From Myxococcales bacterium (GTDB taxonomy: Bacteria; Myxococcota_A; Polyangia; Polyangiales; Polyangiaceae), in contig JAAFHV010000082.1 in the NCBI GenBank assembly GCA_013297655.1, forward strand, positions 1 through 33,635: a stretch of DNA of 33,635 nt, in the 5' to 3' direction. This document shows positions 5,289 to 21,422 of this stretch, piece after piece. Numbering within the stretch: the stretch's first letter is position 1; each line of letters begins with the position of its first letter. Both the position numbers and the translations under genes were made by a program. The notes under the pieces were generated by a model. That model worked only from the letters and a program-made list of their open reading frames with translations. It was not told the origin of the DNA and did not search any database.

Positions 5289-6353
5289 TCAGCGGTAGCG
5301 GTCGGCGACCTTGGCGAAGGAGTCCTTGTCTTGTGCCTTCTCGAGGGCGGTGTCGGCGGTGATCGACTTTTGCGCCAGCATACGCTCGAGGCACATGTCG
5401 ATCGTCTGCATGCCTTGCGACTGACCGCCCTGCATGAGGCTCGGAATTTGGGTCGTCTTGCCCTCGCGGATCATGGAGGCGATCGCGGGAGAGCCGATGA
5501 GGATCTCGTGCGCCGCGACCCGGCCTTTGCCATCGGCCGATTTCAGGAGCTGCTGCCCCACGATCCCAGCCAAGGCCTCCGCGAGCATGCCGCGAATTTG
5601 AGGCTGCTCGTCGGCTACGAACGAGTTCGTGATGCGCTCGATCGTCGCCGGCGCGCTGTTCGTGTGCACCGTCGCGAAGATGAGGATGCCGAAGCTCGCG
5701 AGCTGGAGCGCGAGCTTCATCGTCTCGTTCGTGCGGAGCTCCCCCACGAGCACCACGTCCGGGTTCTCGCGCCCCGCGCTGCGCATCGCGGTGGTGAAGC
5801 TGGAGGCGTGAATGCCCACTTCGCGATGGGTCACCTGCGCCATCTGCGACTCGTGGACGAACTCGACCGGATCTTCGATCGTGAGGATGTGGCAGGCGCG
5901 GGTGCGGTTGATGTGGTCGATCATCGCGGCGAGGGTGGTCGACTTGCCGGACCCGGTCGGCCCCGTCACGAGCACCAGGCCGCTCTTGCGCTCCGCGAGC
6001 TTCCGCAGCACCGGGGGGCACGCGAGATCGTCGAGGGTCTTTATCTTCTGAGGGATAATTCGGAACACCGCCGCGAAGGTGCCCCGTTTGATGAAGTAGT
6101 TCGCCCTGAAGCGCGCCTTCTTCTCGTACTGGTGGGCAAAGTCGAGGTCGAGATCGTCACGAATCTTCTTCTCTTGCCCTGGCGTGGTGATGCCGAAGAG
6201 GAGGCGATCCATTTCGTCCTCGTCGACCGCCTTTTCTCGCGCGGGGACCAGCTCGCCGCGTAGACGCAGCATGGGCGGATAGCCGACGCCGAGGTGGAGA
6301 TCGCTCGCCCCGCGGGACAAAAGCTCGTCGAAGAGGGCATCGATGACAGGCAT
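5289..6353 (-). CDS. pilT: Type IV pilus retraction ATPase PilT
   Basis: This 354-residue protein has the normal PilT length and order. The N-domain (1-100) contains SDLHLGVGYPPMLRLRGEL. The ATPase core has Walker A GPTGSGKS (131-138), Asp box TIEDPVEFVH (158-167), Walker B RENPDVVLVGELR (Glu205) and His box ATVHTNSA (His230). The PilT-specific C-terminal segment appears as SMIREGKTTQIPSLMQ (293-308), where most PilTs have AIRNLIRE. PilT is the cytoplasmic hexamer that pulls subunits out of the pilus and drives twitching. The gene lies 5 bases downstream of a second PilT-like gene on the same strand, so the two are almost certainly one operon. Which of the several pilT paralogs typical of myxobacteria this is cannot be told from sequence. 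Confidence 0.93.
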   Translation of the reverse strand: MPVIDALFDELLSRGASDLHLGVGYPPMLRLRGELVPAREKAVDEDEMDRLLFGITTPGQEKKIRDDLDLDFAHQYEKKARFRANYFIKRGTFAAVFRIIPQKIKTLDDLACPPVLRKLAERKSGLVLVTGPTGSGKSTTLAAMIDHINRTRACHILTIEDPVEFVHESQMAQVTHREVGIHASSFTTAMRSAGRENPDVVLVGELRTNETMKLALQLASFGILIFATVHTNSAPATIERITNSFVADEQPQIRGMLAEALAGIVGQQLLKSADGKGRVAAHEILIGSPAIASMIREGKTTQIPSLMQGGQSQGMQTIDMCLERMLAQKSITADTALEKAQDKDSFAKVADRYR

Positions 6354-6358
6354 TTACG

Positions 6359-8380
6359 CTACCCCTTCCTTCCGAAGAGACTGCCGAGCAGCCCCTCTGG
6401 CTTTTTGGCTTCGACTGGCTTCTGCGTGAACATGGCCTCGAGCTCTTGTGGTGCCTCCGCGACCTCTTTGGCGACCTCGAGCGACACTTTGCCCTCCCTC
6501 ACGAGGTCGGCGAGGGACTCGTCGAGGCGCACGATCCCGAGCGCCTTTCCGCGCTGCTGCAGGCTCGGAATTTGGAACGTGCGGTTGTCGCGGATGAGGG
6601 CCCAGAGCGAGGTGGAGCCGGGCAAGAGCTCCGCCGCGGCGTGGAGCGACTTGCGGTCGACGGAGGGCACCAAGCGCTGCCCCACCACGAGCCGAAGCCC
6701 GCCCGCGAGCGTCATCCGGATCTGGGCCTGATCGCTCGGGGGAAAAAGGTCGATGAGGCGCTCGATCGCCTTCGCCGCGTTGGGCGTGTTCATCGTGCCG
6801 AGCACCAAGTGGCCAGTCTCGCTCGCCGCCACCGCCATGCGCACGGTCTCCACGTCGCGCAGCTCGCCGACCACGATCACGTCCGGATCCTCGCGGAGGG
6901 AGCCCTTCAATGCAGAGAGGAACGACGCCGTATCGGTGCCGACCTCGCGCTGGCTCATGATCGCTTTTTTGCGCGGATGAACGAACTCGATCGGATCTTC
7001 CACCGTGATCACGTGGTGGGCGCGATCGCTGTTGATGAGGTCCACGATCGCGGCCAACGTGGTGGTCTTTCCGTGACCGGTGGGGCCGGTGACCACGATG
7101 AGGCCCTGGTGGTGCTGGGTCGCCTGCGCGATGCCCTGCGGGAGCGAGAGGCTCGCGAGGGTGGGCACGTTGCGCGGGATCACGCGCAGCGAAATCTTGA
7201 AGCCTGTCCGCTGTTTGGACACGTTCACCCGGAACCGACCGGTGGCCGGATCGTCGAGCGCGAAGTCGACCGAGCCGTCGACGTCGAGGGTCTGACGTTG
7301 GCGCGCGGGCACACACGAGAGCACGATCTTGTCGACCAACGCGTCCGACAGCGGCTCGCCTTTCGGCACGAGCTCGAACGCGATTCGGTAGAGGGGAGGC
7401 CGCCCGTTCACGAGGTGAAGGTCCGAAGCGTGGGTCTCCACCGCGACCCGAAGGAGGGACTCGAGCTCCGGCGGTCGCGGCGGGCCGCCCGAGCTCCGCA
7501 TCGTCGCCTCTTGAATCGACTCCGAGATCATCGGCGCGCGCGGCGCGGGTCGCGGATCGATCCGCGGCTCGGGCATCGGATCCATGCGCACGGCGGGGCG
7601 GGGCTCGGCACGTGGCTCGTGGAGCGGCGGCATCTGCACACGAGGCTGCGGCGGAGGGGAGGGCACGTGCGGGCGTGTCTCGGCCATCGTCGCAGGGGGC
7701 ATCGGCTGCGGCTCGGACTTGGGCTCTTTGCGCTCTCCGCCGATGACGGGGATCGGCTGCGGCTCGGACTTGGGCTCCTTGCGCGGGTAGGTCGCGCCTC
7801 CGGCCGGCGGCAGGTCGGACTCGAGGCGAGGGTCGCGGCGCGCCTCCCGCGCCTCGGGCTTCTGGGCCGGACGTGGGTCCATTCGCGACGAGCTGAGGGG
7901 CTCCGCGCGCTCTTCCTTCGGCCTCGCGTGCGCTCCGAGCGGACCTTGTGGCGGCGCGGCTTGCTGTGGCGCCCTGCGTGGCTCGCCGCTCGGCGTGGAC
8001 GAAGCGGGTGCAGGGGGAGCTTTTGCGCCCGTCACGTCACGCGGCGACGACGACGCGGGCTCGTCGTCCGTGCGCTTCGTCGCACGCAGGAGACAGAGGC
8101 GAATCTCGAGGATGGCCGCGACCTTCTTGGCAGAGATGGACACCGTGCCTACCGGCTCTGCGCGCGCCGTCCAAGACGCCGGCGTCTTCGCGAGCGAATC
8201 GATGTAACGACTCCCCCCGAGCGCGAAGAGCGCCGAAACGAGGCCGTCTTCGGTGAGCGTGTCGTTGCCGAACGGGATCGGCTCGCCGCCGACGAGGGCC
8301 ATGGGCCGCTCGCCGCACGTGAGCACGAGCTCGGTGACTCCAGGCTGAGAGAGGTGCGCGAGGTATGCCGAAATCTTCAT
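6359..8380 (-). CDS. PilT/PilU-like ATPase with extra N-domain and Pro-rich linker
   Basis: At 673 residues this is nearly twice the usual PilT/PilU length. Residues 305-660 form a complete ATPase: SDLHLVNGRPPLYRI (319-333), Walker A GPTGHGKT (432-439), TVEDPIEFVH (459-468), Walker B REDPDVIVVGELRD (496-509) and a His-box-like GHLVLGTMNT in which His524 precedes the usual position. Residues 1-100 (TELVLTCGERPMALVGGEPI) look like a second, degenerate copy of the PilT N-domain, with TELVL aligning to SDLHL. A Pro/Arg/Glu-rich linker (about 105-300) joins them and contains a duplicated KEPKSEPQP (201-209 and 218-226). It is probably a pilus motor accessory or a motor with an added docking module; that role is inferred. 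It is the first gene of the operon with pilT. Confidence 0.88.
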   Translation of the reverse strand: MKISAYLAHLSQPGVTELVLTCGERPMALVGGEPIPFGNDTLTEDGLVSALFALGGSRYIDSLAKTPASWTARAEPVGTVSISAKKVAAILEIRLCLLRATKRTDDEPASSSPRDVTGAKAPPAPASSTPSGEPRRAPQQAAPPQGPLGAHARPKEERAEPLSSSRMDPRPAQKPEAREARRDPRLESDLPPAGGATYPRKEPKSEPQPIPVIGGERKEPKSEPQPMPPATMAETRPHVPSPPPQPRVQMPPLHEPRAEPRPAVRMDPMPEPRIDPRPAPRAPMISESIQEATMRSSGGPPRPPELESLLRVAVETHASDLHLVNGRPPLYRIAFELVPKGEPLSDALVDKIVLSCVPARQRQTLDVDGSVDFALDDPATGRFRVNVSKQRTGFKISLRVIPRNVPTLASLSLPQGIAQATQHHQGLIVVTGPTGHGKTTTLAAIVDLINSDRAHHVITVEDPIEFVHPRKKAIMSQREVGTDTASFLSALKGSLREDPDVIVVGELRDVETVRMAVAASETGHLVLGTMNTPNAAKAIERLIDLFPPSDQAQIRMTLAGGLRLVVGQRLVPSVDRKSLHAAAELLPGSTSLWALIRDNRTFQIPSLQQRGKALGIVRLDESLADLVREGKVSLEVAKEVAEAPQELEAMFTQKPVEAKKPEGLLGSLFGRKG

Positions 8381-15112: not shown

Positions 15113-15211
15113 CGAGCCGGTTTGGCTTTCGTGGCGGCTTGGCCGAATCGGATCGAAAGCTGGCCGGGTACACACTTTCGGCCACGGTCGAAACGGGTCA
15201 AATTGGGGCTC

Positions 15212-16108
15212 ATGAAGCTCGTGTCGCTCGTGTTTTGTGCTGCGATCCTCGCGTCGTCGTTCGCGAGCGGGTGTGCTCCGGTGGCCGCTCCAGTTTCGGC
15301 GCGTTCTCCGGTGACGGAGATGACCTCGAACGCGTGGGGCTTCTCGACGCAGTCGTATTGGATCGAGGGGCCGGCCGGGCTCGTCGCGATCGATACGCAA
15401 TTTCTCCCCTCCGAGGCGGAGCGCATGATCACGACCGCCGAGAAGAGCACCGGGAAAAAGTTTGCCCTCGCGATCGTGCTCCACGCCAACCCGGACAAGT
15501 TCAACGGCACCGCCACGTTCCAAAGGCACGGCATCAAGGTCGTCACGTCGAAGCAGGTGAAAGACCTGCTCCCCAGCGTGCACGAGAAGCGCACCCGCGC
15601 GTTCTACGATCGCTACGCCCCCGATTATCCGAAAGAGCTGCCCGCTCCGGACGTGTTCGGCGACAAGGACACCACCATCGAAGCGGCGGGCCTGAAGCTG
15701 AATCTCCACGTGATGGGTGCAGGGTGCAGCGAATCGCACGTCGTCGTAGAGTGGGAAAAACACGCCTTCGTCGGCGATCTGGTGGGCAATCGGGTGCACT
15801 CCTGGCTCGAGATCGGCAAGACCGACGAGTGGCTCCTTCGCCTCGCCGAGATAGGTAAGCTCGCTCCCACGGTGGTGCACCCCGGCCGCGGAAAAACCGG
15901 CGGTCCCGAGCTCCTCGTGAACGAAAGGGCGTATCTCGAAAAGGTGATTTCAATCGTCGCGGGGGAGGGGCCCACGACGCCGGTCGACGAGGCCAAGCTC
16001 GGGCGCGCCAAAGAGAAGATCGTCGCCGCGTATCCCGGTTATGGGTTTCCGGTGTTCCTCGAGATCGGGTTGCCCGCGGAGTGGGAGCGCCAAGCGCGGA
16101 AGAGGTGA
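15212..16108 (+). CDS. Metallo-beta-lactamase-fold lipoprotein
   Basis: The ATG at 15212 gives 298 residues with a signal peptide ending at ASGC (Cys21). This choice removes an unlikely N-terminal extension in the longer frame. The order of elements is that of the metallo-beta-lactamase fold: NAWGFSTQSYWIEGPAGLVAIDTQ (about 40-63), VLHANPDKFNG (89-99) in place of the HxHxDH motif, GCSESHVVVEW, AFVGDLVGNRVHSW and VVHPGRGKTGG. In the first metal site only His91 and Asp95 remain; Asn93 and Lys96 replace the second and third histidines. Metal content may therefore be reduced, or the enzyme altered or inactive. Substrate unknown. The stop codon is 4 bases from the convergent HIT gene. Confidence 0.82.
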   Translation: MKLVSLVFCAAILASSFASGCAPVAAPVSARSPVTEMTSNAWGFSTQSYWIEGPAGLVAIDTQFLPSEAERMITTAEKSTGKKFALAIVLHANPDKFNGTATFQRHGIKVVTSKQVKDLLPSVHEKRTRAFYDRYAPDYPKELPAPDVFGDKDTTIEAAGLKLNLHVMGAGCSESHVVVEWEKHAFVGDLVGNRVHSWLEIGKTDEWLLRLAEIGKLAPTVVHPGRGKTGGPELLVNERAYLEKVISIVAGEGPTTPVDEAKLGRAKEKIVAAYPGYGFPVFLEIGLPAEWERQARKR

Positions 16109-16112
16109 CGGG

Positions 16113-16547
16113 TCAGCCCGAGGCGATCGCGGCGGCGATTTTGTCGCGGATCGCGCTCTTCTCTTCGGGGGTCGCGTACTTCTTTCGTGGCCAGAAGAAG
16201 CCGCGAAGTCCGTCGCCCTTCGTGCGAGGCACTACGTGCACGTGAAGGTGAGGAACGCTCTGGCTCACCTTTTGGTTCAGCGCGACGAACGTGCCTTGCG
16301 CGTCGAGGGCGGCTTCTACCGCGATACCGATCGCGCGTACGCGCGTGAACAGGGGAGCGATCTCGTGCGCCTCGAGGTCGGCGAGGGTCACGGCGTGGCG
16401 CTTCGGGACCACGAGCACGTGCCCCGGGAACACGGGCGACACGTCCAAGAACGCGAGGTGGAGGTCGTCCTCGAACACCACGTCGGCCGAGGTCGCGCCG
16501 GCGACGATGCTGCAGAATACACACGTTCCGGGGGTCGACCGTGCCAT
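16113..16547 (-). CDS. HIT family nucleotide hydrolase/transferase
   Basis: This 144-residue protein has the histidine-triad motif HLHVHVVPR (100-108; His100, 102, 104), the zinc-site pair CVFC (9-12), and the family segment VFEDDLHLAFLDVSPVFPGHVLVVPKRH (24-51). HIT proteins of this HINT/bacterial type hydrolyse nucleoside phosphoramidates or dinucleoside polyphosphates through the central triad histidine. Length is normal for the family. Residues after 108 (FFWPRKKY) are lineage-specific. The gene lies 164 bases downstream of the lipoprotein operon on the same strand and may have its own promoter. Confidence 0.92.
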   Translation of the reverse strand: MARSTPGTCVFCSIVAGATSADVVFEDDLHLAFLDVSPVFPGHVLVVPKRHAVTLADLEAHEIAPLFTRVRAIGIAVEAALDAQGTFVALNQKVSQSVPHLHVHVVPRTKGDGLRGFFWPRKKYATPEEKSAIRDKIAAAIASG

Positions 16548-16711: not shown

Positions 16712-18841
16712 TCAGAACACGCCCACGATCTGAATCCGCGGGCCGTGGAAGATATCCAATCCGCCGAAGTCGACCTTCTTGTCGACCTGGTAGGTGGTGC
16801 CCTCTGCCGTCTGCGTGGCGCGGAGGCCGGAGAGGATCGTCTGGTAAATCGCCTCGCCGTGATACTGCATCTCGAGGAGCACCCTGAGGCGCAGCTTGCG
16901 CGGGGTGAGGCGAATGCGGGCGCCGAGGCCGAGCGATCCATTGATGAGGAGCGCAGCGGGGTTCTCGGTTTGGCCGCCGGTGAGCGCGTATTTCGTGGGG
17001 CCCGCGCCGCCGTAAATGCCCACGTCGCCGAAGAGCGAGATCATGCGCCCCTCGCCTTGGCCGAAGCGAAACGTGCCGCCGCCGAGATAGCTCTGCGTGC
17101 TCACGCGCTGGGTGAGGCTCTCGCGCGCGAACTTGAAGTTCTGATTCTCGGAGCCAGGAGGGTTTACGTCTTGCAGCTCGTAGAGCACCCGCGGGAGGCG
17201 GTAGCTCATGTAGCGAAAGCCGACGAGCACCTCTTCGATCCAGAGCTTGCCCACCGTCTCGGGGGAGAGCAGGAAGGCGACGTCGTAGCCTACGTCGAGC
17301 TGGGTATACGAGAGCTGGAGCGGCGCCTTCGCGATGGTGCCGGTGTCTTGCCCGGTCACGGGATCGACCGCGATTTCGGTGACCTCGCCGTTGGTGAAGG
17401 TGGCATTCTTGAGGCGCGTGCGAATGCCCACGAGGCCGGCGCCGATGTCGAGCACGTCGCTCGCGAGCCCGGTGAGGCCGAGCTGCTGTCCGAGGGAGCC
17501 CGAGTTTTCGATGTTGCCGTTCACGCCGAAGATGCGGTCCGTCGTGAAGGCGCCGCCCAAGGTGGCTGCGTTCTGCAAGTGGAGCCAATCGAACGCGAGC
17601 TGCACCCGCCCGCCCACCATCGCGACCGGCTTCACGTCGTACGAGAGCCTTCGTGTGCGGCCGGTGTAGTCGCCGCTGACGCCCTTGGTGCCAACTTGGT
17701 TGAAGAACACGACCTCGCCGTCGAGCTTCGCGTGGGCCCGGAACGAGTCCCAGTTCACGCCCACGACCTGGTCGACGATGCTCTCTTTGTAGAGAAATCC
17801 AGCCGTTTTCTCGCGTGGAACGCGCACGTTGCCAGAGAGCACCACGTTCGTGCGCTCGAGCAGCGCCTCGTCGTGGGCGAGCATCGCTTCGGACCCGAGC
17901 ATGCGCCCCGGTACGTCGCCGAGGCCGAGCCGCTCTGCCTCTTTGCCGCGCTCGGCGACGAAGAGATCACGCTGCGCGAACGAGATGCTGCGCGCCGCCT
18001 GCTTCTCGACGATAGGAATCAACGCGCGCGTCTCGAGGGTGGTTCGCAGCACCACCGAGAGCACCTCGAGGCTGTCTTTCACGATTCGGTCGCGCACCGG
18101 ATCGGCGGTCGACGCGGCGGCGAGGCCCTCGATCGACGGCATGAGGGCGGCCTCTGCGGCGCGCACTTTTCCGTCGGCCACCCCGGTGCGCTGCTTGGCC
18201 TGCACGAGGGCGGGCGGATCGGCCGGCACCGAAGGCGGCATCGGCACGTTGCGATGGCGAAGATCCTCGACCACCTTTTGCTGCGCGAACGTAGCCTCGG
18301 CGAGGTCGTTCACCGCCGCGTCGTAGGCGAGGAACTGCGCCTTCAGATCTTTGCTCGAGGGTGAAACCGTCGCGAGGGCGTCGAGCACGCTCGGGTACAT
18401 TGGCGCGTTTTTTCGGGGCGCGAGGGCCCCTTGTTCCACCTTCTCGAGGTGAACGCGGAACACCTTCGCGGCCGGGATCTCGTGCTCGCCACCTTGGTAG
18501 GGAGGTTTGCTCTCGATCTCGGTCTTTACCCGTTTGGCCACTTCGCCTTGGAGGGCGAGGTTGGCTATCCACTCGTCGGCGGGGGCATACGGCACCTTCT
18601 CGAGGAGGCGCATCGCCACCGCGCGCGCGGCCCTCACGTCGGTCGCGCGATCGGTCACGACCTCCGTCACGGCCTCCTCGTTCGAGAACGCCCGCTGCGC
18701 CCGCACGTTGAACGTGGCCGGCGCGCAGCCCGTCGTCAGCGCCGCGCACGCGAGCACGACCGAGCCGGCCAGCGTGGTCCACCGCCCACGCCGCGCTGTC
18801 CGTTCGGCCCGGCGCCCCATCCCCCGCAACGCAGCGCTCAT
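16712..18841 (-). CDS. Predicted outer-membrane lipoprotein with C-terminal barrel
   Basis: This 709-residue protein begins with an arginine-rich stretch, a hydrophobic segment (about 22-37) and a possible lipobox TTGC (Cys39; Cys32 is an alternative). Residues 45-330 are alpha-helical in character and rich in Ala/Glu/Lys. From about 345 the sequence becomes amphipathic, Gly/aromatic-rich beta strands (LSYDVKPVAMVGGRVQLAF, LQLSYTQLDVGYDVAF, KLRLRVLLEMQYHGEAIY), and it ends in RIQIVGVF with a terminal Phe, the usual signal of an outer-membrane barrel. I recognise no named family. Its start lies 7 bases after the stop codon of the 857-residue lipoprotein gene, so the two are co-transcribed and probably work together. 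Confidence 0.75.
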   Translation of the reverse strand: MSAALRGMGRRAERTARRGRWTTLAGSVVLACAALTTGCAPATFNVRAQRAFSNEEAVTEVVTDRATDVRAARAVAMRLLEKVPYAPADEWIANLALQGEVAKRVKTEIESKPPYQGGEHEIPAAKVFRVHLEKVEQGALAPRKNAPMYPSVLDALATVSPSSKDLKAQFLAYDAAVNDLAEATFAQQKVVEDLRHRNVPMPPSVPADPPALVQAKQRTGVADGKVRAAEAALMPSIEGLAAASTADPVRDRIVKDSLEVLSVVLRTTLETRALIPIVEKQAARSISFAQRDLFVAERGKEAERLGLGDVPGRMLGSEAMLAHDEALLERTNVVLSGNVRVPREKTAGFLYKESIVDQVVGVNWDSFRAHAKLDGEVVFFNQVGTKGVSGDYTGRTRRLSYDVKPVAMVGGRVQLAFDWLHLQNAATLGGAFTTDRIFGVNGNIENSGSLGQQLGLTGLASDVLDIGAGLVGIRTRLKNATFTNGEVTEIAVDPVTGQDTGTIAKAPLQLSYTQLDVGYDVAFLLSPETVGKLWIEEVLVGFRYMSYRLPRVLYELQDVNPPGSENQNFKFARESLTQRVSTQSYLGGGTFRFGQGEGRMISLFGDVGIYGGAGPTKYALTGGQTENPAALLINGSLGLGARIRLTPRKLRLRVLLEMQYHGEAIYQTILSGLRATQTAEGTTYQVDKKVDFGGLDIFHGPRIQIVGVF

Positions 18842-18848
18842 ATGGGCT

Positions 18849-21422
18849 TTACTTTCCTGCGATCACTTTGCCGAGGTCGAACATACCGGCGCGAATCACC
18901 GAAGACTCCGAGCCTTTGGCGGCGACGGCCACGCTGGTGAACCCGGACTTCTGGAAGCGCTCGCGGTTCTGGAAGAACGAGGACTTCGTGTCGGCGGTCA
19001 CGTCGAGGCCCACTTCGAGGTTGCGCGCCGGCACGAGCGAGAGCAGCGGGAAGGCCGCGGTGTGCTCGTCCCAGAGGCGCGCGTTGATGCGATCCGCTTC
19101 CTTGTAGAGTGCATCGAACAGGCGCGACGCGGCTTTGGCGCGGTCGTGGCTCGTCGACTCGAGGAGGGCCGATTCGTAGAGCTTGGCGTCACCGCCGTCG
19201 ACGGCGAAGCGCACGCCGAGGGGGTAGGTCGCGTAGCGTTTGCCGGCGAGGGCTTGCGGGACGACACGCTCGGCCTCGGCGATGAGGCGGTAGGCGTGGG
19301 TGCTCTTTTGGAACACGGTCGCCATCGCGTCCATCTCGCCTGCCCACTTCTTGTCGACGTCTTTGCGGGTCTCTTCTTTGGAGCGGCCCTTCGCGTTCGC
19401 GACGCGATCGAGCTCGGTCGTGGCGAGGTACTCGCGGAGCGCGGCGCGGTATTGATCTTTCGATTTACCGGCGAGCACCTCGAGCGCGCGATCGTCGAGG
19501 CGGTAGTCGACGGTGATCGAGGCGTTCGGTCCGTTGAAGGCGTCCGGGTTGTCGGAGCCGACGGATTGCAGCGCGACGCGGTTCTTCGCCGCTTCGCGGA
19601 GCACCTTGCGGAAGTCTTCGGAGAGGTTCGCGATTTCGCGATCGAAGGCGGCGAGGCCTTCGGTGCGGAGGCGGATCGCGGCGGGATCGTCGAGCAGCGC
19701 GACGACACATTTTTCGTCGAGCTTGTCTGGAGTGGGGTTGCTGCGCGGGCCGCTGTTGGTGCCCTCTTTGAAGCACTTGTCTTTCACCATCGCGTCGAGG
19801 GCGTTGCCGAACTGATCGAGCGTCTCGAGCGCCTTCGGGCCGGCGAGGGCGAGGATGAGCGCGTCGCTCGCGTCGATGAGCATGTCGTCGTCGAGGTGGC
19901 TGTCGCTCGCGACGGTTTGCAAAAAGAGGTTCGCCTCGCTGGTGAACTTGTCTGGCGATTTGACGTCGAGGGTCTGCGCGGCGACGCCGGTGCGGGTGTA
20001 CCCGTGCTCGGTCTGGAACCAGCCACCGTGTTTGTTCACCGAGTCGAAGAGGATGGAGCGCGCGCCATCGGGCGTTTGCACCACGAAGGTGCCTTCGTTC
20101 TTCACGACGGCGCGGTGGTACACGTTCATGCCGAGGAGCTCGAAGCCAAAGCTGCGGGTCGACGTGGTGGAGGCGCGCACGGCGTCGAAGTCGACCGAGA
20201 CGGCCGGCTCGCGCTCGGCGAGGTCGCGGTTGTAGAGCGACTGCGCGAGGCGAACGTCGAGGCGGAGCGCGTGCTCGAGGGCGCGATTGACCTCGGTCTT
20301 GTCGCCGCGATCGAGGTGAAAGCGCAGGCGCGAGAGGCTGACGCGGCTCGAGGTGTTGGCGGCGGCGCCTTCGACCTGGAACGTGACGTAGCTGTTGAGG
20401 CGCTTCTCGACGGCCTTCTCGACGAGGCGCGCGAGATCGACATTTTTGCCGGCGAGCTCCACGCTGCGGAGGCACTTCTGGCCGTCGTCGCAGATGCCCT
20501 TGATGCCCCACGCGTCGCTCACGCCGGCGCGGACCGAGACGGCGCGCGCGTTCTCCACGCCCACGTCGACCACGACCTCGTCGCCGTCGAGGCGCACGAG
20601 CTGCACGTCGACCTGTCCGCCAATAACGGCGGAGGCGCCACCCGAGACGAGCACGCGATAGGCAACTCCGCCGGTGGGCTCGGCGACGAGGATCGGGAGG
20701 CCGAGGCCCACGTTCGCGCCCAACTGGCCCACGCCGCGGAGGGCGAACGACTCGCCCGGCTTCATCTTGCGGACCTCGTCCATGTTGCGCGGGTACACGA
20801 AGCCGCGCGCTTCTTTCACGGCTTTGAGGGGCGCGCTGACGAGCGACGAGAGGCCGTCGTCTTTGGTCGCGACGATGACGCGGGAGGAGACCTCGGTGCT
20901 CGCGTCGAAGCCGAGGGTGGTCTTCGCGGCGAAGCCGGGGGCATCGAACGACCAGCCGTGGTCGGCGCCGACGCGGAGGGCGAACCCGGACTCCACGTAA
21001 TAACCGTCGGCGCCGCTGCGGAGGCGCGCGAGGCGGACTTTGTTCACTTCTGCGCCAATTTCGCCTTCACCGAAGCGCGCGCCGAGGCCGGTGACGACCG
21101 AGTCGAGGCCTTTCACTTCGGCGTTGTTGGGGAGCACCTTGTTCGGCTCGGCGGCGACACCGAACACCGAGGGGGCGTCCACGCGGGCGGCGAAGTTGCC
21201 GACCGAGAGGCCGTCGTTCAGAGCGTCGCTCGCGAAGCCGACTGTGACCCGCGTGAGGTCGCCCAGGTCGAGCTTCTTCGCGTCTGCCCAGTACGACTTC
21301 AGCTCGGTGACGTGCTCCTCGCTCTCGCCCGTGTTTTCGTCGGGGGGGAGCTCACCGGAGCAGGCGAGGGTGGCGTTGACGAGGAGGGCGAGACCGACCG
21401 GAAAGACCGCAGAACGACGCAT
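18849..21422 (-). CDS. Large envelope lipoprotein of unknown function
   Basis: The ATG at 21422 gives 857 residues starting MRRSAVFPVGLALLVNATLAC, a signal peptide ending at a lipobox-like TLAC (Cys21). A longer upstream frame would bury this signal and is rejected. An acidic spacer (ELPPDENTGESEEH) follows. The first 300 or so residues are rich in short beta strands (VTVGFASDALNDG, GVAYRVLVSGGASAVIGGQVDVQLVRL). The second half is mainly helical with Lys/Arg/Glu. Cysteine pairs in GICDDGQKCL and in DKCF...EKCV suggest disulfides. No catalytic motif or known family is visible. It is the first gene of a two-gene operon with the barrel lipoprotein 7 bases downstream. Function cannot be stated. 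Confidence 0.78.
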   Translation of the reverse strand: MRRSAVFPVGLALLVNATLACSGELPPDENTGESEEHVTELKSYWADAKKLDLGDLTRVTVGFASDALNDGLSVGNFAARVDAPSVFGVAAEPNKVLPNNAEVKGLDSVVTGLGARFGEGEIGAEVNKVRLARLRSGADGYYVESGFALRVGADHGWSFDAPGFAAKTTLGFDASTEVSSRVIVATKDDGLSSLVSAPLKAVKEARGFVYPRNMDEVRKMKPGESFALRGVGQLGANVGLGLPILVAEPTGGVAYRVLVSGGASAVIGGQVDVQLVRLDGDEVVVDVGVENARAVSVRAGVSDAWGIKGICDDGQKCLRSVELAGKNVDLARLVEKAVEKRLNSYVTFQVEGAAANTSSRVSLSRLRFHLDRGDKTEVNRALEHALRLDVRLAQSLYNRDLAEREPAVSVDFDAVRASTTSTRSFGFELLGMNVYHRAVVKNEGTFVVQTPDGARSILFDSVNKHGGWFQTEHGYTRTGVAAQTLDVKSPDKFTSEANLFLQTVASDSHLDDDMLIDASDALILALAGPKALETLDQFGNALDAMVKDKCFKEGTNSGPRSNPTPDKLDEKCVVALLDDPAAIRLRTEGLAAFDREIANLSEDFRKVLREAAKNRVALQSVGSDNPDAFNGPNASITVDYRLDDRALEVLAGKSKDQYRAALREYLATTELDRVANAKGRSKEETRKDVDKKWAGEMDAMATVFQKSTHAYRLIAEAERVVPQALAGKRYATYPLGVRFAVDGGDAKLYESALLESTSHDRAKAASRLFDALYKEADRINARLWDEHTAAFPLLSLVPARNLEVGLDVTADTKSSFFQNRERFQKSGFTSVAVAAKGSESSVIRAGMFDLGKVIAGK

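What the first reader, a model, noticed from the sequence alone, without database searches (positions are those of the whole stretch)
16712..21422. Operon of two large unrecognised envelope lipoproteins
An 857-residue lipoprotein and a 709-residue protein with signal sequence, helical N-half and outer-membrane-type C-terminus ending in Phe are encoded 7 bases apart. Neither shows a family I know. The size, tight coupling and surface location suggest a two-part surface or export assembly. This is the best candidate in the window for an undescribed system.
Basis: partly seen in the sequence, partly recalled or inferred. Interest (0 to 1): 0.5.

Follow-up and report, generated by a model that had tools for sequence, protein, structure and literature searches.

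The report
Two unlinked myxobacterial envelope lipoprotein families
Two neighbouring genes of a myxobacterium-like bacterium encode large predicted envelope lipoproteins of undescribed families, but relatives keep these genes apart, so they are probably two independent proteins rather than one two-part machine; one of them is a mosaic of two modules that also occur separately.

Summary
The two genes are real: minus strand, 7 bases apart, 857 (P1) and 709 (P2) residues. Homologs 25-63% (P1) and 34-53% (P2) identical exist in other genera. Neither has a convincing match in Pfam, NCBIfam, PHROGs, PADLOC or the PDB. Both are predicted lipoproteins; P2's Cys39 is invariant. The proposed two-part assembly is not supported. 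In the 108 genomes returned for the family, P1 is in 18 and a long P2 match in 20, both in 6 (without the window 5 against 3.0 expected, P = 0.15). They adjoin only in the window; in the five other genomes with both, the gene called after P1 is not P2. P2 is modular: its lipidated helical N-half also occurs without the C-half, and one distant homolog of the C-half occurs alone. The C-half shows strand alternation like outer-membrane proteins, though not uniquely. I read P2 as a lipid-anchored helical arm joined to an outer-membrane barrel, and P1 as a separate outer-membrane lipoprotein. Structure prediction was inconclusive.

The parts
18849..21422 (-). P1: 857-aa predicted lipoprotein gene of an undescribed family; Cys21, invariant Cys550 and Cys572, conserved G-x-F near the C-terminus
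   Evidence: no convincing family
20493..21050 (-). P1 residues 125-310, stretch with strong strand-type alternation (beta z 3.8 on the 22-row profile); fold unknown
   Evidence: low-confidence model
16712..18841 (-). P2: 709-aa predicted lipoprotein gene made of two separable modules
17807..18727 (-). P2 residues 39-345: lipidated helical N-module (Cys39 invariant), found elsewhere without the C-half
16715..17806 (-). P2 residues 346-709: predicted outer-membrane barrel; one distant homolog found elsewhere without the N-half
18842..18848 (-). 7-base gap between the stop codon of P1 and the ATG of P2
18852..18858 (-). AGGAAAG just before the P1 stop codon, a possible but distantly placed ribosome-binding site for P2
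   Evidence: read; not tested
16113..16547 (-). HIT-domain protein gene 164 bases downstream of P2; probably not part of the unit
   Evidence: three P2 relatives have a HinT-like HIT gene at the other side of P2

Best explanation
The stretch holds two independent envelope lipoproteins that are neighbours, probably co-transcribed, only in this lineage. P2 is a two-module outer-membrane protein. Its acylated cysteine would tether a roughly 300-residue helical module to the periplasmic face of the outer membrane, and its C-terminal 364 residues would insert as a beta-barrel. It would work as a pore or channel with a built-in periplasmic arm that gates it or docks a partner. P1 would be a separate lipoprotein, exported by the normal lipoprotein route and held at the outer membrane, with an N-terminal strand-rich part, a helical C-terminal part and one conserved cysteine pair, most likely a binding or adhesion protein. 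Shown: gene structure, conserved candidate lipid cysteines, family conservation, separate occurrence of the P2 modules, lack of linkage between P1 and P2. Inferred: acylation, the barrel, membrane location, disulfide, pore and binding functions, co-transcription.
For: Lipid cysteine: P2 10 of 10 and 11 of 11 rows, P1 90% or more of 22. The residue after the Cys is Ser (P1) and Ala (P2), not the Asp that keeps lipoproteins in the inner membrane (rule recalled). P2 N-half without C-half: L080 (388 aa), L081 and L082 (642 and 640 aa, with a Pro-rich linker and another C-terminal part), found by the full P2 profile at E 6e-30, 2e-17, 2e-15. C-half without N-half: L137, 371 aa, with an ordinary-looking signal peptide and no lipobox (by eye); E 2.4e-5 per genome over profile positions 201-362, 45-362 of 365 with filters off. 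Strand alternation of the C-half: z 3.4-3.5 on profiles; 12 single sequences average 2.3 against 0.21, sd 1.27, for 241 neighbouring proteins, a set that includes P1 and P2 members, and inside the 0.9-6.5 of 12 matches to two Pfam outer-membrane families in the same genome (6 of the 12 over their cut-off, two of the 12 look like the same protein). No linkage.
Against: No usable structure: the P2 model was made from a single sequence (mean pLDDT 36); the P1 model from six sequences has pLDDT 51, pTM 0.43 and no Foldseek hit with E <= 0.001. The alternation test is not specific: the 12 C-halves lie at percentiles 83-98 of the background, and several unrelated neighbours score as high. One of ten C-halves matches OMP_b-brl at E 0.0044, below the family cut-off; the C-half profile finds no solved barrel. 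L137 is a single distant homolog. Helix periodicity is absent in some N-halves, the window's included, and not significant in the C-part of P1, which is helical only by the weak model. P1 and P2 co-occur slightly more than expected in the family (5 against 3.0 without the window, P = 0.15; counting weak P2 hits 7 against 4.3, P = 0.09), so a loose functional link is not excluded. In G442 both genes lie near contig ends, so only the 7-base kind of coupling is firmly excluded there.
Confidence: 0.6

Rival explanations
1. Two-part assembly: P2 is an outer-membrane export or anchoring channel and P1 its surface-displayed partner or cargo, as with channels that move lipoproteins to the cell surface.
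For: Same strand, 7-base gap, both predicted lipoproteins, P2 with a barrel-like C-half. Slight, not significant, excess of co-occurrence in the family.
Against: Next to each other only in the window; in the 5 other family genomes with both, the gene called after P1 is another one; 12 of 18 P1 genomes lack a long P2 match and 14 of 20 long-P2 genomes lack P1. In 376 other genomes of the phylum sample 1 has both, 0.70 expected.
Confidence: 0.1
2. The C-half of P2 is a periplasmic or surface beta domain, not a membrane barrel; P2 is then an ordinary large lipoprotein.
For: No barrel family reaches its cut-off; the terminal strand lacks the classical aromatic at position -3 (signature recalled); the protein carries a lipid cysteine; alternation also occurs in unrelated neighbours.
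Against: Alternation in the range of outer-membrane controls, terminal Phe, Leu or Tyr in 12 of 12 rows (the distant L137 ends in Met), and one homolog without the lipid module but with a signal peptide.
Confidence: 0.25
3. The strand-rich part of P1 is itself a membrane-inserting beta structure, so that P1 is a pore former rather than a binding lipoprotein.
For: Residues 125-310 have strand alternation z 3.8; the model draws long hairpins there, and low-scoring VIA-align rows include OmpG, FadL, LptD and pore-forming toxins (Z 3.5-4.8).
Against: These Z values are within what the tool calls common; the model confidence is low; alternation also occurs in soluble beta domains.
Confidence: 0.1

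Closest known systems
Barrel translocators with a helical periplasmic N-domain (Slam/DUF560, BcsC, PgaA; architecture recalled; for Slam only the listing and the start of the abstract of PMC9090332 were seen)
   Same: Helical N-part followed by a predicted C-terminal barrel.
   Different: P2 has a lipid cysteine, no TPR family is among the matches of 10 members, and no conserved gene lies beside it.
Acylated outer-membrane factors of the TolC/OprM kind (recalled)
   Same: Lipid-anchored outer-membrane protein with helical and strand parts.
   Different: No outer-membrane-factor family among the matches of 10 members; the order helices-then-barrel with separable halves differs from the TolC fold (recalled). 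The TolC/OprM rows belong to P1's weak model (rmsd about 43) and mean nothing.
OMP_b-brl (PF13505)
   Same: One of ten P2 C-halves matches over 78 residues, E 0.0044.
   Different: Below the curated cut-off (17.6 against 28.7 bits); the C-half is about twice as long as the 175-position profile.
DUF4403 (PF14356)
   Same: Two of 22 P1 members match weakly (best E 0.078).
   Different: Not significant; not seen in the window protein.

Membership tests
Gram-negative lipoprotein | Signal peptide and lipobox cysteine conserved across homologs | tested here: met
   P2 Cys39 10/10 and 11/11 rows; P1 Cys21 90% or more of 22 (missing in L034, cut at its start, and not aligned in L102). In the window P1 the residue at -3 is Thr. 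A simple lipobox pattern on over-extended ORFs found no site in 5 of 21 P1 and 4 of 13 P2 proteins, the window P1 among them, and in some others hit a wrong site.
Gram-negative lipoprotein | Acylation in the cell | not testable with these tools
   needs labelling
Conserved two-gene assembly | Pair kept together across genomes | tested here: not met
   Adjacent in 1 of 6 family genomes with both; no significant co-occurrence.
Outer-membrane beta-barrel protein | Closed barrel of a countable number of strands | tested here: inconclusive
   Alternation within the range of outer-membrane controls but not unique to them; 19 windows over threshold give no reliable strand count; single-sequence model useless.
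TPR-barrel translocators (Slam, BcsC, PgaA) | TPR repeats and a family-specific barrel | tested here: not met
   No such Pfam family among the matches of 10 P2 members at E <= 1 or 10 C-halves at E <= 5; sequence level only.
TolC/OprM outer-membrane factor | Outer-membrane-factor family match | tested here: not met
   Not among the matches of 10 P2 members; sequence level only.
OMP_b-brl (PF13505) | Match above the curated score | tested here: inconclusive
   1 of 10 C-halves at 17.6 bits, cut-off 28.7; none in the window protein.

The most novel reading that the evidence does not exclude
P2 represents a new class of outer-membrane translocon, a barrel with a covalently joined, lipid-anchored helical periplasmic arm, that carries lipoproteins such as P1 to the surface; in this lineage channel and client have come under one promoter, while elsewhere P2 serves other clients encoded apart.
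Probability: 0.06. Interest if true: 0.7.

Novelty: new variant of a known kind. Interest (0 to 1): 0.3.

Why it matters
Two protein families with no convincing entry in the libraries searched are delimited here, with alignments of 22 (P1) and 10-12 (P2) members. P2 looks like domain shuffling in the envelope: a lipid-anchored helical module and a barrel-like module that occur fused or apart. It also shows that a tight two-gene layout in one genome can mislead about a shared machine.

Tried and rejected
Co-occurrence as support for an assembly: tested three ways and not found (59 relatives with the window included; 377 of the phylum; 108 of the family; statistics).

Conserved neighbours as a clue to function: none common to the P1 or to the P2 loci. 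Five P2 loci lie within a few genes of one cluster (L040, L111, L196, L201, L209) that looks by eye like prfA in the three members read, and three lie beside a HinT-like HIT gene (L041, L111, L208). I take this as an old single-gene chromosomal site, not a partner; that is inference. My crude gene caller (GC by codon position) did not call P1 in four fetched loci (L032, L100, L108, L109); they are left out of the neighbour counts, and one search shows no P2 in those four genomes (G038, G336, G170, G210). Two of the 31 called P1 loci are the halves of one gene split between contigs (G416), and two of the 25 P2 loci are fragments (L044, L045).

Structures: P1 from six sequences (pLDDT 51), searched in PDB, inconclusive; the helical matches to transporters, the top Z 8.7 among them, are taken as common arrangements. 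P2 alone (pLDDT 36), not searched. Allowed homologs of P2 for a fold were not obtained (none; only P1 relatives).

Rejected as chance or composition: the PADLOC hit of P1 (restriction enzyme, E 4.6e-5 over 88 residues of the charged part); the PHROGs hit of P2 (E 0.0068 over 28 residues at the signal peptide); NCBIfam hits of up to 3 of 22 P1 members, best E 0.0024. A weak P1 hit in G048 (E 0.006), counted in the tally, is by its look a transporter, not a relative; it was left in the counts. Outer-membrane controls were first read in wrong frames for several proteins and redone; only one search is used for them. Plasmids: no match for either. Viral contigs: none. Two paper searches (listings only, no paper opened) showed nothing on these families; this is no proof that they are not in print.

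Full report
What is there. Two minus-strand genes, P1 (18849-21422, 857 aa) and P2 (16712-18841, 709 aa), are separated by 7 bases. GC content is even across the region (63-69%), and the promoter and terminator scan found no site on the minus strand (it covers one promoter type only). Upstream lies a divergent SOUL heme-binding gene and downstream a HIT-domain gene. Both reading frames are real genes: long homologs without internal stops are found in other genera, at 25-63% identity for P1 (21 homologs, one of them, L034, cut at its start) and 34-53% for P2 (9 homologs). Titles of the five relatives found in named records are Myxococcales, Polyangiaceae and Deltaproteobacteria assemblies.

No known family. 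Pfam, NCBIfam, PHROGs, PADLOC and PDB sequences give no convincing match for either protein or for the homologs tested (Pfam: 10 P2 members; 10 C-halves; ten further proteins; 8 and 22 P1 members; NCBIfam: 22 P1 members; profiles against PDB). The most relevant weak match is OMP_b-brl for one C-half of P2 (E 0.0044, under the cut-off). A PADLOC hit of P1 at E 4.6e-5 falls in the charged part and is not believed.

Both look like lipoproteins. The cysteine after the signal peptide is invariant in P2 (10 of 10; 11 of 11) and listed as 90% or more in P1. P1 also has an invariant cysteine pair (Cys550, Cys572) and an invariant G-x-F near its end; 15 of the 22 P1 rows carry a KCD motif after the lipid cysteine, and the window protein does not (counted by eye).

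Not a conserved pair. In 59 relatives, window included, P1 is reported in 8 (one of them, G048, judged false) and P2 in 13, both in two (G000, G036). In 377 genomes of the phylum P1 is in 23 and P2 in 13, both in two (G000, G373). In the 108 genomes returned for the family P1 is in 18; P2 is in 28 at E <= 0.001, of which 20 have a long match (E below 1e-180); P1 with long P2 is in six: G000, G036, G373, G416, G421, G442. Leaving the window out, 5 are observed against 3.0 expected (P = 0.15), or 7 against 4.3 counting weak P2 hits (P = 0.09); related genomes are not independent, so these P values overstate any link. In G036, G416, G421, G442 and at both P1 copies of G373 the gene called after P1 is another one; in G373 one P1 and one P2 copy share a contig and lie about 128 kb apart. 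In G442 P1 ends about 420 bases before a contig end and P2 begins 261 bases after one, so tight coupling is excluded there but a looser neighbourhood is excluded only by a crude gene call. Of 31 called P1 loci and 25 called P2 loci only the window holds both. Fifteen of the 31 P1 genes, the window's included, have a same-strand gene downstream; ten of these genes were read and look unrelated to each other.

P2 is modular. The full P2 profile finds proteins that match only the N-half: L080, a 388-aa protein that ends about where the barrel half would begin, and L081/L082, where the module is followed by a Pro-rich linker and another part. These three then entered alignment A5, so their later scores against A5 are by construction. 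A more distant lipoprotein-like protein, L128, matches part of the module. The C-half profile finds L137, 371 aa, with an ordinary-looking signal peptide and no helical module (E 2.4e-5 over positions 201-362; ORF); with filters off the match covers positions 45-362 of 365. One distant homolog is thin evidence for autonomy of the C-half, but it was not part of the profile.

Nature of the halves. On the alignment profile residues 41-345 show helix periodicity (z 2.7) and no strand alternation, and residues 346-709 the reverse (z 3.4). Single N-halves vary (alpha z -0.4 to 3.1, the window's being lowest). Against 241 proteins from the fetched neighbourhoods (mean 0.21, sd 1.27; the set includes P1 and P2 members, and some unrelated proteins in it score about 3 to 4), twelve single C-halves average z 2.3, at percentiles 83-98, and twelve matches to two outer-membrane families of the same genome range from 0.9 to 6.5 (six of the twelve are over their family's cut-off and two look like the same protein). 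This fits an outer-membrane barrel and does not prove it. A strand count could not be made. For P1, residues 125-310 show strong alternation (z 3.8) and the part after residue 510 no significant helix periodicity.

Structure. The P1 model (six sequences) has mean pLDDT 51 and pTM 0.43, with its best stretch, mostly helical, at about 510-670; Foldseek gave nothing with E <= 0.001 and VIA-align only matches of a common kind. The P2 model without homologs is not interpretable; it draws helices in the N-half at low confidence.

Verdict. The two-part system is not supported. The most informative feature is P2's fusion of a lipid-anchored helical module to a barrel-like module.

Noticed in passing
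window 15122-16108 +: A protein with a weak metallo-beta-lactamase match (E 0.001, below cut-off); by eye it has HANPDKFNG where the zinc motif would be, perhaps a degenerate member.
   Followed up: no
window 5289-6353 - and 6359-8380 -: Two neighbouring paralogous ATPases of the type II/IV secretion kind (PF00437), 5 bases apart.
   Followed up: no
L081:1483-3411 and L082:1298-3220: P2-type N-module followed by a long Pro-Gln-Gly-rich repeat and a cysteine-containing C-terminal part.
   Followed up: partly
L041, L111, L208: A HinT-like HIT gene lies beside P2 in three genomes, while the window has a different HIT gene on the other side of P2.
   Followed up: partly
L110:5013-6359 -: A lipoprotein-like gene overlapping the end of a P1 gene by 4 bases, with a GKRDSW motif after the signal peptide; another lineage-specific neighbour of P1.
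   Followed up: no
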